NCBI RefSeq assembly: GCF_009833965.1
Contig: NZ_CP047165.1
Coordinates: 1,674,001-1,738,000, forward strand
Origin: Pelistega ratti
Lineage (GTDB): Bacteria > Pseudomonadota > Gammaproteobacteria > Burkholderiales > Burkholderiaceae_B
DNA length: 64,000 nt
Reading direction: 5' to 3'
In this document: piece by piece, positions 12,148 to 16,369 of the stretch
Position numbering within the stretch: the first letter of the stretch is position 1
How the letters are laid out: every line of letters starts with the position of its first letter
Position numbers and translations under genes: made by a program
The notes under the pieces: generated by a model
What the model saw: only the letters and a program-made list of their open reading frames with translations
The model's database searches: none
What the model was told of the DNA's origin: nothing

Positions 12148-12354
12148 CTACGATGTGTATTCTCGAATAATTTCTTCGGCTAAATAGGCATCACTCAAGC
12201 AATGTATATCGGCAATTCCTTCGCTCATTAATTCATAGGTTTTTGAACGCATAAAGTAATCTAGTGCTTGGGCTAATGAGATATGTAATTGCTCTGCAAG
12301 TAATACAATAATTCGGGCATACTTGCGTTGTAAGAGAACAGGATTTGCCATCAT
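12148..12354 (-). CDS. DUF3791-like small protein, third gene of a DUF3791-DUF3990 cassette
   Basis: 68 residues, all predicted helical (KYARIIVLLAEQLHISLAQALDYFMRSKTYELM.. DAYLAEEIIREY). It resembles the short partner found after DUF3990 genes. Its ATG at 12354 overlaps the TGA stop of the remnant DUF3990 frame (12351-12353), so before the insertion it was translationally coupled. The element at 12438-13334 now separates it from the rest of the cassette. It therefore has to be transcribed from an outward or local promoter, if at all. The function is unknown; an antidote or adaptor role for the DUF3990 protein is inference only. Confidence 0.65.
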   Translation of the reverse strand: MMANPVLLQRKYARIIVLLAEQLHISLAQALDYFMRSKTYELMSEGIADIHCLSDAYLAEEIIREYTS

Positions 12355-12430
12355 AATATTTCACTACCTTTGAAAATAAGATGTTGATTTAAAATGGTTT
12401 GATTAAGAAAACAAATTTGTTGATTATTTT

Positions 12431-12437
12431 CTTCATA
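12431..12437. repeat. Target-site duplication, left copy
   Basis: CTTCATA, identical to 13335-13341 on the other side of the insertion element. Inside the original gene it encoded part of codons for Tyr-Glu on the minus strand. Confidence 0.85.
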
Positions 12438-13334
12438 TGTAGAATAAACTAGCGTTGTTTACATTATTTTAAGATAATAGTACGATGAATATACACAAAA
12501 ACACTCGCTTATTACCTCGCCAAAGAGAAGAGATTTGGCTAGCTTACACGCAAAACAAACAAAATGTCACTTCTTTAGCGAAAGAATACAAGGTTTCTCG
12601 CCCCACCATCTATAAGATACTCAAACTCGCTCGTGGTCGATTATTAAAACCTCAGACCAGTATCAATAATCGGTTTAGACAGGCTAAATTTGGGATTAAA
12701 CGCTTAGCCAAAGTAGAAAAGTCCATCCAAGAACGATTAAAAAAACAAGCCAAACGCTATAATAAATCCTATCCTGGCGAGATGGTTCATGTCGATACAA
12801 AACGCTTGCCTTTACTGAAAGGACAACACACGCAAAGTCAAAGGGAATATCTGTTTGTGGCTATCGATGATTACTCGCGTGAATTATATGCGGCTATTAT
12901 GCCAGATAAAACCGCCTTTAGCGCAGCTACGTTCTTAACCCAACATCTGATAGACCCTTGTCCTTATACCATAGAGGTTATTTACTCGGATAATGGAACA
13001 GAATACAAAGGAACAAAAGAACATGAGTTTGGTAAAGCCTGTTATCAACATCATATCAATCAAAAATTTACTAAAGTCGCCAATCCTAAAACCAATGGAA
13101 AAGCAGAAAGGGTGATTAGAACCTTAATGCAAATGTGGCATGATAAACATGAATTTACCGATAGCCAGCATAGAAAACAGGAGCTTACCCGATTTATTAA
13201 TTTCTACAACACCGTAAAACCACATAGTGCTCTTGTTTACCAAGATCAACTTGGTCATAAACGGACACTGACACCTTACGAATATTTAGAAATTTATTTT
13301 GCAAATAGTGTAAACAACGCTTGAGTTTCTAACA
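12438..13334 (+). mobile_element. IS481-type insertion sequence, complete (897 bp)
   Basis: The ends begin TGT and finish ACA. The terminal 32 bases are inverted repeats with 24 of 32 positions matching, including an 11-bp fully conserved block AGCGTTGTTTA. The element carries one transposase gene. A perfect 7-bp direct duplication CTTCATA flanks it (12431-12437 and 13335-13341). Removing the element restores the reading frame of the DUF3990 gene, which confirms the boundaries. Family assignment rests on the transposase pattern, the TGT ends and the single-ORF layout. Confidence 0.88.
12485..13324 (+). CDS. IS481-type DDE transposase
   Basis: 279 residues. An N-terminal helix-turn-helix (about 28-46: VTSLAKEYKVSRPTIYKIL) binds the ends. 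The integrase-like core has the DDE triad at D104 (HVDTKR), D169 (YSDNGTEYKG) and E208 (NGKAERVIRTL), followed by FYNTVKPHSAL, the usual C-terminal block. It is a full-length single reading frame, so the element is probably active. The stop codon lies inside the right inverted repeat. It is oriented opposite to the gene it interrupts. Confidence 0.93.
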   Translation: MNIHKNTRLLPRQREEIWLAYTQNKQNVTSLAKEYKVSRPTIYKILKLARGRLLKPQTSINNRFRQAKFGIKRLAKVEKSIQERLKKQAKRYNKSYPGEMVHVDTKRLPLLKGQHTQSQREYLFVAIDDYSRELYAAIMPDKTAFSAATFLTQHLIDPCPYTIEVIYSDNGTEYKGTKEHEFGKACYQHHINQKFTKVANPKTNGKAERVIRTLMQMWHDKHEFTDSQHRKQELTRFINFYNTVKPHSALVYQDQLGHKRTLTPYEYLEIYFANSVNNA

Positions 13335-13341
13335 CTTCATA
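13335..13341. repeat. Target-site duplication, right copy
   Basis: CTTCATA, identical to 12431-12437. The clean, undecayed duplication suggests that the insertion is recent. Confidence 0.85.
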
Positions 13342-13723
13342 CATTAATCGACCTGATGCTTCCTGTTTTGTAATTAAGTTTTCTGTGAGTAATTCAATTG
13401 TATTAAAAATACGGTCATTGGCTACCCCTCCCAGTATAATATCAAAAGTTTCAACAGCAATACCTATACGATTGGCTAAGATAAAATCAAGCCATTGTTC
13501 ACTATAAGAATAAAATGTTTTAGTGTGAAACTGTGTAAATAAGGTTTCATCAAATTCATAGTAATTAAGTACGGCATTTTTCCTAAGCGTTTGAAACGCA
13601 TCGTCCAATTAATGGCCTGTTGCTTAATCGGTATTGTATAAAAACCTTGTCCGAAGTCTAAGTTTTTGCGTGAAAAGGTAATATTGGGTTGAGTAACTTC
13701 TACTGTTGAGCCATGGTACAAAA

Positions 13724-13966
13724 TCATAATAAATTCTTCTCTTGCATTAAACCAATAATATCTTCCACTAAATAGTCCTTGCCAAGCGTATGTAATATTT
13801 CGTAATTTGCCACAATATAATCTTGTAATAAACCACTTTTTGCTAATTTTTGATAGATTAAAGTAGTTGGCATACAAAGTTTTTTAGCAATAAAATCAAT
13901 GCAAAAGAGTACAAACTCAAGCTCTTGTTGGTGATGAATTTGAAATGTTGTGCCAATGTCTTTCAT
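13724..13966 (-). CDS. DUF3791 protein, first gene of the DUF3791-DUF3990 cassette
   Basis: 80 residues with the typical DUF3791 pattern: FVLFCIDFIAKKL, a leucine-rich helical middle (IYQKLAKSGLL), YIVANYEILHTLG and DYLVEDIIGLM. The TGA stop overlaps the ATG of the DUF3990 gene. The frame is intact although the central gene is broken. DUF3791 genes usually sit directly in front of DUF3990, which has led to suspicion of a toxin/antitoxin-like or effector/adaptor pairing; this is inference. The composition is AT-rich like the rest of the cassette. Confidence 0.78.
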   Translation of the reverse strand: MKDIGTTFQIHHQQELEFVLFCIDFIAKKLCMPTTLIYQKLAKSGLLQDYIVANYEILHTLGKDYLVEDIIGLMQEKNLL

Positions 13967-14252: not shown

Positions 14253-15032
14253 ATGCGTTCATTATTTATTGCCATCAGTTTAGCCATGGGGGTTTCAAGT
14301 GTCGCCCTTGCGCAATCCTATCAAGAAATCAAAATTGGTACGGCACCAGCCTATGCGCCTTTTGAGTACAAGAATGAACAAGGTGAGTTGGTAGGGTTTG
14401 ATATCGATGTTGCACATGCTATCTGTGAGCGATTAAAAACCAAATGTGTTTGGGTTGAACAACCATTTGAATCGTTGATGCCTGGTTTGCAAGCGCGTAA
14501 GTTTGATATTATCCATTCAGGTCTAACACATAATGCCATGCGAGAAAAGGTGATTAATTTCTCAGAAGATATTTATGCGATTCCCACTCAATTATTGGCA
14601 AAAAAAGGCAGTGGTTTTGAGCCAACGGTAGAGTCGCTTAAAGGCAAACGGGTCGGTGCTTTACAAGGGAGTGCACAAGAAGCCTATGCTAAACAAGAAT
14701 GGGGGAAGAAAGGGGTAAAAATTGTTTCTTATACCGAGCAAGTACAGACCTTTATCGATTTAGCCGCAGGACGAATTGATGCCGCGATTATAGAGAAACC
14801 AAATGGTTATGCTGGCTTTTTGAGTAAACCTGAAGGGCAAGATTATGAATATGTTGGAGAGCCTTTAGAGCATCCTTTATTAGCGAATAAAATTGGTATT
14901 GGTTTGCGTAAACAAGATAAGCAATTAAAAGCGGATATTGATGCCGCTATTTTGGCATTACGTCAAGAAGGTGTTATTGCTAAATTAGCAGAAAAACATT
15001 TTCAAGCAGGTGAGTTAAACCTACTGGATTAG
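14253..15032 (+). CDS. Basic amino acid ABC transporter, periplasmic binding protein (copy 1)
   Basis: 259 residues. A signal peptide (about 1-20, ALA/QS) is followed by a type II periplasmic binding fold: EIKIGTAPAYAPFEYKNEQGELVGFDIDVAHAICERL at the start, then QPFESLMPGLQARKFD and REKVINFSEDIYAIP. These match the lysine/arginine/ornithine and histidine binding proteins (HisJ/ArgT/ArtJ group). Substrate specificity among basic amino acids cannot be fixed by eye. A near-identical paralogue follows at 15587 and the permease/ATPase genes come after it. This copy has its own promoter and a hairpin terminator. Confidence 0.93.
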   Translation: MRSLFIAISLAMGVSSVALAQSYQEIKIGTAPAYAPFEYKNEQGELVGFDIDVAHAICERLKTKCVWVEQPFESLMPGLQARKFDIIHSGLTHNAMREKVINFSEDIYAIPTQLLAKKGSGFEPTVESLKGKRVGALQGSAQEAYAKQEWGKKGVKIVSYTEQVQTFIDLAAGRIDAAIIEKPNGYAGFLSKPEGQDYEYVGEPLEHPLLANKIGIGLRKQDKQLKADIDAAILALRQEGVIAKLAEKHFQAGELNLLD

Positions 15033-15586: not shown

Positions 15587-16369
15587 ATGCGTTCATTATT
15601 CATAACTCTTGGCTTGGTGATGGGTTTCACCAGTATGGCTTTTGCAAACCAAGAAAGTAGAGAAATTAAAATTGGTACGGAATCGGCTTATGCCCCATTT
15701 GAGTACAAAAATGAAAAGGGTGAGTTAGTCGGATTTGATATTGATGTGGGTAATGCTATTTGTGAAAAATTAAACGCAAAATGCGTATGGGTAGAGCAAC
15801 CTTTTGAGTCGCTTTTACCGGGGTTACAAGCACGTAAATTTGATATTGTTCATGCGAGCTTGACGCATAATGCAGCCCGTGAGAAAGTGATTAATTTCTC
15901 TGAGAGTGTTTATGCAATTCCTACGCAGTTATTAGCTAAAAAAGGGAGTGGTCTTGAGCCAACGGTAGAGTCGCTTAAAGGTAAACGGGTCGGTGCTTTA
16001 CAAGGAAGTGCGCAAGAAGCGTATGCTAAACAAGTATGGGGTAAGAAAGGGGTAAAAATTGTTTCTTATACCGAGCAAGATCAAACCTTTATTGACCTAG
16101 GTGCAGGACGTATTGATGCGGCCATTCTGGAAAAACCAAATGGTTATGCTGGCTTACTCAGTAAACCAGAGGGTAAAGATTACGAATATGTGGGTGAGCC
16201 ACTTGTCCATCCTTTATTGGCCAATAAAATTGGATTGGGTTTTCGTAAACAGGATAAGCAATTAAAAGCAGAAGTCGATGAGGCAATTTTAGCTTTGCGC
16301 AAAGAAGGTGTTATTGCTCAGTTAGCTGAAAAATATTTCCAAAAAGATGAATTAGATTTGCTTGACTAA
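15587..16369 (+). CDS. Basic amino acid ABC transporter, periplasmic binding protein (copy 2)
   Basis: 260 residues, with signal peptide (about 1-20, AFA/NQ). It aligns end to end with copy 1; roughly four residues in five are identical, including FEYKNE.GELVGFDIDV, CVWVEQPFESL and SLKGKRVGALQGSAQEAYAKQ. The differences cluster in the signal peptide and in ligand-side segments such as IIHSGLTHNAM versus IVHASLTHNAA, which may alter affinity or preference. It has its own promoter and ribosome site (TGAGGT) and is the copy next to the permease genes. Confidence 0.93.
   Translation: MRSLFITLGLVMGFTSMAFANQESREIKIGTESAYAPFEYKNEKGELVGFDIDVGNAICEKLNAKCVWVEQPFESLLPGLQARKFDIVHASLTHNAAREKVINFSESVYAIPTQLLAKKGSGLEPTVESLKGKRVGALQGSAQEAYAKQVWGKKGVKIVSYTEQDQTFIDLGAGRIDAAILEKPNGYAGLLSKPEGKDYEYVGEPLVHPLLANKIGLGFRKQDKQLKAEVDEAILALRKEGVIAQLAEKYFQKDELDLLD

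What the first reader, a model, noticed from the sequence alone, without database searches (positions are those of the whole stretch)
12351..13966. A three-gene DUF3791-DUF3990-DUF3791 cassette with its central gene doubly inactivated
The order DUF3791, DUF3990, DUF3791-like is joined by ATGA overlaps at both junctions once the insertion is removed. The flanking small genes stay intact while the central one is broken twice. That asymmetry is what is expected if the central product is costly or toxic. The YHGS and DFGxGFY motifs of DUF3990 look like the H-Y-E ADP-ribosyltransferase pattern, so an effector of that type is possible. Function is not shown.
Basis: partly seen in the sequence, partly recalled or inferred. 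Interest (0 to 1): 0.72.

Follow-up and report, generated by a model that had tools for sequence, protein, structure and literature searches.

The report
Toxin-dead three-gene ART defence cassette
A bacterial chromosome carries a three-gene cassette already listed as an anti-phage defence candidate; its middle gene, predicted to make a self-poisoning enzyme, is broken while its two small neighbours, likely the antidotes, stay intact, and the same one-sided loss is seen at many other loci.

Summary
On the minus strand lie DUF3791-A (13724-13966), a DUF3990 gene in two frames that is also split by an 897-bp IS481-like element (12438-13334, 7-bp target duplication), and DUF3791-B (12148-12354), with ATGA overlaps at both junctions. 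The trio matches the three components of PADLOC candidate PDC-M13, so this cassette type is already catalogued; my searches found no functional study. The model of an intact relative has an ADP-ribosyltransferase (ART) fold, nearest to RES-type toxins ParT and MbcT. The trio is near-invariant: all three genes are full length in 75 of 80 named-genome loci, and DUF3990 (over cut-off) and DUF3791 share the same 8 of 140 genomes of the Glaesserella family. Loss is one-sided: in a Lachnospiraceae survey 33 loci keep both DUF3791 domains (80% or more) with a broken or missing ART; no trio-type intact ART lacked its pair. In the three nearest relatives with context in hand, the trio sits between mcrB-like and mcrC-like genes. 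Best reading: a relic PDC-M13 whose likely intracellular ART toxin is disabled while a likely antidote pair stays. Toxicity, neutralisation and defence are inferred.

The parts
13724..13966 (-). DUF3791-A (PDC-M13A), 80 aa, intact; likely antidote or toxin-binding subunit
   Evidence: PF12668 64.6 bits; PDC-M13A E 6e-26; all-helical AlphaFold model, pLDDT 91.9
13512..13727 (-). DUF3990/ART N-terminal piece (profile positions 1-73), with the conserved His (YHGS) and Tyr (DFGxGFY)
   Evidence: PDC-M13B E 5e-21
13342..13593 (-). DUF3990/ART middle piece in another frame, ending at the IS insertion site
   Evidence: PDC-M13B E 1.5e-26; 87% identity over 91% of the 104-aa ORF to P0002
13335..13341 (.). 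target-site duplication CTTCATA, one copy
   Evidence: read
12438..13334 (+). IS481-like insertion sequence, 897 bp; 6 full-length copies in this genome counting this one
12485..13324 (+). transposase of the IS, 279 aa
   Evidence: rve/rve_3 over their cut-offs; best NCBIfam model IS481, 175.5 bits, under its cut-off of 224
12431..12437 (.). target-site duplication CTTCATA, other copy
   Evidence: read
12351..12437 (-). DUF3990/ART C-terminal remnant with stop, overlapping the start of DUF3791-B by ATGA
   Evidence: junction text compared by eye with P0002
12148..12354 (-). DUF3791-B (PDC-M13C), 68 aa, intact; likely second half of the antidote pair
   Evidence: PDC-M13C E 1.2e-31; 84% identical to a Glaesserella australis DUF3791 protein

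Best explanation
This is a disabled, relic copy of the three-gene PADLOC candidate PDC-M13, whose central DUF3990 protein is predicted to be an ADP-ribosyltransferase-fold toxin (nearest to the RES toxins ParT and MbcT) that would be held inactive by the two flanking DUF3791 proteins, likely as an anti-phage suicide module. Shown: the trio, its overlaps, the two lesions (the frame change barring a sequencing error), the PDC-M13 matches, and that relatives lose the ART while keeping both DUF3791 genes. Predicted: the ART fold. Inferred: the ART acts on NAD (hydrolysis, phosphorolysis or transfer) inside its own cell; the two DUF3791 proteins form a heteromeric antidote, since A-type can be fused to the ART and A- and B-type to each other; and phage infection, possibly disturbance of a neighbouring restriction system, releases the ART. 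Here a frame change and an IS insertion disable the ART, and the partners remain because nothing selects against them.
For: PADLOC component matches. ART-clan family (PMC7955679 passage) and ART fold. His5 conserved in 80 of 81, Tyr30 in 81 of 81, Gln136 in 81 of 81. DUF3990 is also a C-terminal domain of T6SS Rhs proteins (PMC4524185, PMC10763514 passages). Trio full length in 75 of 80 and present on 4 of 4 viral contigs (three are one identical sequence). Four-base overlap in 78 of 79 and 77 of 81 junctions. Same 8 of 140 genomes in the Glaesserella family. One-sided loss: 33 to 0, 3 to 0 (one locus is also among the 33), 2 to 0. A-ART single-frame fusions at five loci (L149 and L243 shown); A-B in one frame (L166, L187). 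Trio between mcrB-like and mcrC-like genes in L004-L006. HTH-bearing partner in a related DUF3990 group.
Against: No toxicity, binding or phage data. The third catalytic position looks like Gln rather than Glu, so transferase activity is uncertain. Foldseek gave no PDB match at E <= 0.001. DUF3791 has no informative structural match, so neutralisation rests on genetics alone. ART remnants are no more diverged at the protein level than the DUF3791 genes, so lasting selection to keep the partners is not shown. The window copy is not beside any defence gene I recognised. Only 3 of 8 trios in the Glaesserella family lie in an mcrBC-like operon, and neighbours were not compared with a control.
Confidence: 0.66

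Rival explanations
1. The ART is a regulatory or housekeeping ADP-ribosyltransferase, not a toxin; the DUF3791 proteins have their own role, and the ART is simply the more dispensable gene.
For: DUF3791 genes persist without an intact ART (33 pairs, and 13 units with a single DUF3791); remnants and partners evolve alike.
Against: In the samples examined, an intact trio-type ART lacked a DUF3791 gene only at a contig end (L049). Sporadic presence and plasmid carriage fit a conflict gene better.
Confidence: 0.15
2. A plain two-part toxin-antitoxin module: only one DUF3791 neutralises the ART; the other is an accessory (chaperone, regulator or toxin subunit). DUF3791-A would be the toxin subunit because it can be fused to the ART.
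For: Five single-frame A-ART fusions, four of them with a separate B seen beside them.
Against: A and B are also found in one frame (L166, L187). Of 13 ART-damaged units with a single DUF3791, 11 keep A and 2 keep B, but the Pfam seed scores A-type higher, so this does not decide which one matters.
Confidence: 0.3
3. The double lesion is chance decay of a recently acquired, selectively neutral cassette in a genome with an active IS, and says nothing about toxicity.
For: Six full IS copies; cassette absent at this site in three congeners; one locus alone is not significant.
Against: One-sided losses with different lesions in the Lachnospiraceae sample, in the Glaesserella family and on a Parabacteroides plasmid.
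Confidence: 0.2
4. The frame change is a sequencing error at a homopolymer, leaving the IS as the only real lesion.
For: Short homopolymer at the frame change.
Against: No second assembly was examined. The IS alone already cuts the gene before its conserved C-terminal part, so the gene would be broken either way.
Confidence: 0.25

Closest known systems
PDC-M13 (PADLOC-DB phage defence candidate; likely source preprint Payne et al. 2024, seen only as a reference in PMC13356809)
   Same: All three components match, in order A-ART-B.
   Different: The window copy is disabled and stands alone; my searches found no functional study.
PDC-M10 and PDC-M42 (PADLOC candidates)
   Same: Related DUF3990-type ART with a dedicated partner.
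   Different: One ~155-aa partner (M10B) or, in two examples, a ~215-aa M42B-like partner with a C-terminal HTH, instead of two DUF3791 genes.
ParST / MbcTA / Xre-RES toxin-antitoxin systems
   Different: About 10% identity, no RES family match; their antitoxins are Xre/DUF2384 type (recalled), and DUF3791 gave no informative structural match.
CmdTAC (PMC11618068, abstract and outline seen)
   Same: Three-part anti-phage module built around an ART.
   Different: CmdA is an antitoxin and CmdC a chaperone; here both partners are DUF3791-like, and the one modelled is helical.
DUF3990 C-terminal domains of T6SS Rhs proteins (PMC4524185, PMC10763514; passages seen)
   Same: Same Pfam domain in the toxin position.
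   Different: Delivered to other cells with other immunity genes; no delivery domain here.

Membership tests
PDC-M13 (PADLOC) | Matches to component models M13A, M13B and M13C | tested here: met
   relatives; window; the ART through its pieces apart
PDC-M13 (PADLOC) | Adjacent genes on one strand in the order A-ART-B (order as seen in relatives; PADLOC's own rule was not seen) | tested here: met
   window; relatives
Working PDC-M13 system | Intact effector gene | tested here: not met
   Frame change and IS; the window copy is filed as a relic, not as a working system
DUF3990 / ART clan | Profile match over the curated cut-off | tested here: met
   58.2 and 74.6 bits against 32.2, pieces apart
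DUF3990 / ART clan | ART fold | tested here: met
DUF3990 / ART clan | H-Y-E catalytic triad | tested here: inconclusive
   His5 and Tyr30 conserved; third position seems to be Gln136 by motif position, without superposition
RES-domain toxins | RES family sequence match | tested here: not met
   No RES family for the window pieces or the A-ART fusion L149, E up to 1
Type II toxin-antitoxin system | Toxin alone arrests growth; cognate protein neutralises by binding | not testable with these tools
   Only genetic asymmetry and fusions available
CmdTAC | Antitoxin plus separate chaperone partner | tested here: inconclusive
   Both partners are DUF3791-like; no informative structure match for A; B not modelled
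IS481 family element | Transposase over the IS481 model's cut-off | tested here: not met
   IS481 is the best NCBIfam model but at 175.5 bits against 224; hence 'IS481-like'
IS481 family element | Terminal inverted repeats and short target duplication | tested here: met
   Repeats; 7-bp duplication at 3 of 3 copies read, of 6

The most novel reading that the evidence does not exclude
PDC-M13 is a new class of tripartite ART toxin system in which two different DUF3791 paralogues together form a heteromeric antidote. Modules slotted into mcrBC-like, BREX and Type I restriction loci act as guards that kill the cell when the restriction system is attacked, and repeated toxin loss leaves antidote-only relics that could shield genomes from incoming intact copies.
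Probability: 0.27. Interest if true: 0.78.

Novelty: new member of a known kind. Interest (0 to 1): 0.55.

Why it matters
PDC-M13 is among the more abundant candidate defence loci in one rumen genome study (3,324 loci, PMC13356809 passage), but my searches found nothing on how it works. The ART fold, the near-invariant DUF3791 pair, the natural fusions and the one-sided loss turn an uncharacterised candidate into a specific, testable toxin-plus-two-partners model, and suggest that counts of such loci could include many toxin-dead ones.

Tried and rejected

Literature: full-text searches for DUF3990 (4 papers, passages seen), DUF3791 (1 paper, passage) and PDC-M13 (1 paper, passages) gave no functional study. 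Searches were seen as listings, with passages of PMC11514479 and PMC11090510. Only open-licence PMC papers are held; the source preprint was not available.

Changed on recheck: the guard reading in the section on the most novel reading went from 0.30 to 0.27, because the unnamed-genome copies in mcrBC-like operons proved to be the same three loci as L004-L006 and five other trios in that family showed no such neighbours.

Full report
WHAT IS THERE. The cassette lies on the minus strand at 12148-13966. DUF3791-A (13724-13966) overlaps the DUF3990 start by ATGA. DUF3990 runs in one frame through profile positions 1-73 and in another from 49 to 141, is then cut by an 897-bp IS481-like element (12438-13334), and its last codons (12351-12437) overlap DUF3791-B (12148-12354) by ATGA. 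The IS has inverted repeats and a 7-bp target duplication. Six full-length copies are in the genome; of the five others, the two read also show 7-bp duplications. The 104-aa middle piece is 87% identical over 91% of its length to an intact 157-aa protein from Pelistega sp. NLN82 (P0002), so the lesions look recent. From this hit I infer that the host is Pelistega or close to it; the genome itself is unnamed.

WHERE IT CAME FROM. Among 150 genomes of relatives, own genome counted, 2 match DUF3990: the own one and one congener, where it lies in a 1154-codon frame of an unrelated large protein. In a phylum sample of 398, own genome counted, only the own genome matched. In three congeners the genes flanking the cassette, a GNAT acetyltransferase and an amino-acid-binding protein, are 114-123 bp apart with no trio, against 2,168 bp here; the other three of six congeners had no GNAT match. 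The nearest relatives with context in hand are Glaesserella australis, Actinobacillus minor and A. porcinus (ART 78-80% identical to P0002); the context of P0002 itself was not seen. Presence here is most simply a horizontal gain, though loss elsewhere is not excluded.

WHAT IT IS CATALOGUED AS. PADLOC-DB has the trio: DUF3791-A matches PDC-M13A, the ART PDC-M13B, DUF3791-B PDC-M13C, for relatives and for the window's genes, the ART as separate pieces. PDC stands for phage defence candidate; the term is used in PMC13356809 and PMC11514479 (passages). PMC13356809 counts 3,324 PDC-M13 loci in rumen genomes and cites Payne et al. 2024 for PDC systems, which I could not read.

THE PARTNERS. In 80 named-genome loci (the best 80 of 318 relatives), 75 hold all three genes full length. 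Three (L034, L044, L048) have an in-frame stop in the ART with both partners complete; L022 has ART and B out of frame near their starts; L049 lacks A at a contig end. All 4 viral contigs have the trio, but three are one identical sequence. The 4-base overlap is seen at 78 of 79 first and 77 of 81 second junctions. In 140 genomes of the family of Glaesserella, DUF3990 over its cut-off and DUF3791 are in the same 8 genomes; Fisher p about 3e-13 without phylogenetic correction. Three further genomes, and one of the eight, had sub-threshold DUF3990 matches inside frames of more than 2,400 codons. Three of the eight are L004-L006 again. Order varies: A-ART-B or ART-B-A. A and ART share one frame at five loci (shown for L149 and L243), and A and B share one frame at L166 and L187. 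DUF3791-A is predicted all-helical (pLDDT 91.9) with no informative PDB match.

ONE-SIDED LOSS. In 299 genomes of the family of Schaedlerella (Lachnospiraceae by that name), 172 have DUF3990 and 91 DUF3791 at E 0.001. I held 30 delivered DUF3990 loci among the best-scoring, 20 chosen DUF3990 regions, mostly long frames, and most of the listed DUF3791 places; both listings were capped. They gave 151 distinct units. Of these, 81 have an intact ART with two DUF3791 domains (8 of them PDC-M10-like, with both hits in one partner). 36 have a broken or absent ART with two, 33 of them with both domains at 80% or more of the profile (L204, L221 and L230 dropped). 13 have a broken or absent ART with one (11 keep A, 2 keep B, but the Pfam seed favours A). 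1 has a broken ART with none, and 20 an intact ART with none or one. Of those 20, ten have a PDC-M10B partner (10 of 10 tested); ten are long-frame ARTs, of which two were tested and have an HTH-bearing PDC-M42B-like partner. So no intact ART of the trio type was seen without its pair, granted that the eight untested long-frame loci are of the other type. A length-only null gives 2.7e-10 for 33 of 33, but loci are related and the set was not random; one of the 33 (L117) is the same locus as L034. Two lesions shown in detail are in-frame internal deletions that keep the ART end overlapping the next gene (L190, L192). In the Glaesserella family 2 of 8 trios have a truncated ART with both partners present, 0 of 8 the reverse. 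A Parabacteroides plasmid copy has a stop in the ART between two annotated DUF3791 genes, and P0018 is a 100-aa form with an in-frame deletion by comparison with P0004 (its neighbours were not seen).

DEFENCE CONTEXT. In L004-L006 the trio sits between a MrcB_N protein ending about 9 bp before it and a DUF2357-PDDEXK_7 protein overlapping its end, i.e. an mcrBC-like operon. Homologues of these two genes were found at no other locus held then (L007-L270), nor beside the five other trios of that family. Among 30 upstream and 30 downstream neighbours chosen for proximity and direction from the 80 loci, ten were then scanned singly: four matched PADLOC families, PglX (L070), PglZ (L077), Type I REase (L023) and PrimPol/mREase_IV-like (L079, probably the TOTE-type primase), and six matched none. 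No control set was scanned, so enrichment is not claimed. DUF3990 relatives are also on 69 of 72,556 plasmid records, all under 60% identity, 28 of them predicted conjugative; pBF9343 carries DUF3791-DUF3990 followed by a small gene and a zeta-toxin gene. In the window the neighbours are a LysO-type exporter, a GNAT protein and a solute-binding protein.

CONCLUSION. The cassette is a disabled relic of PDC-M13. Best-supported mechanism: an intracellular ART-fold toxin under control of a DUF3791 pair. Architecture and loss pattern are shown; the fold is predicted; toxicity, neutralisation and defence are inferred.

Noticed in passing
window 14253-15032 and 15587-16369: Two adjacent, very similar solute-binding proteins (the first is SBP_bac_3), followed by what read by eye as ABC permease and ATPase genes: a recent-looking duplication.
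   Followed up: no
   Followed up: no
L003 (congener): A DUF3990-like domain inside a 1154-codon frame of a large, possibly polyvalent protein in the same genus, unrelated to the trio.
   Followed up: partly
L280-L283 (family of Glaesserella): Sub-threshold DUF3990 matches inside frames of 2,408-2,946 codons, possibly giant secreted proteins.
   Followed up: no
L127: Tandem double cassette ART-B-A-ART-B-A in which only the second ART is in two frames.
   Followed up: partly
L166 1486-1960: A and B DUF3791 domains in one 168-codon frame with no ART found beside them.
   Followed up: partly
L184/L196 (G627) and L198 (G774): Both DUF3791 genes present in genomes that are not among the 172 with a DUF3990 match.
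   Followed up: partly
L271 3502-4615: On pBF9343 the DUF3791-DUF3990 pair is followed by a small gene and then a zeta-toxin family gene.
   Followed up: no
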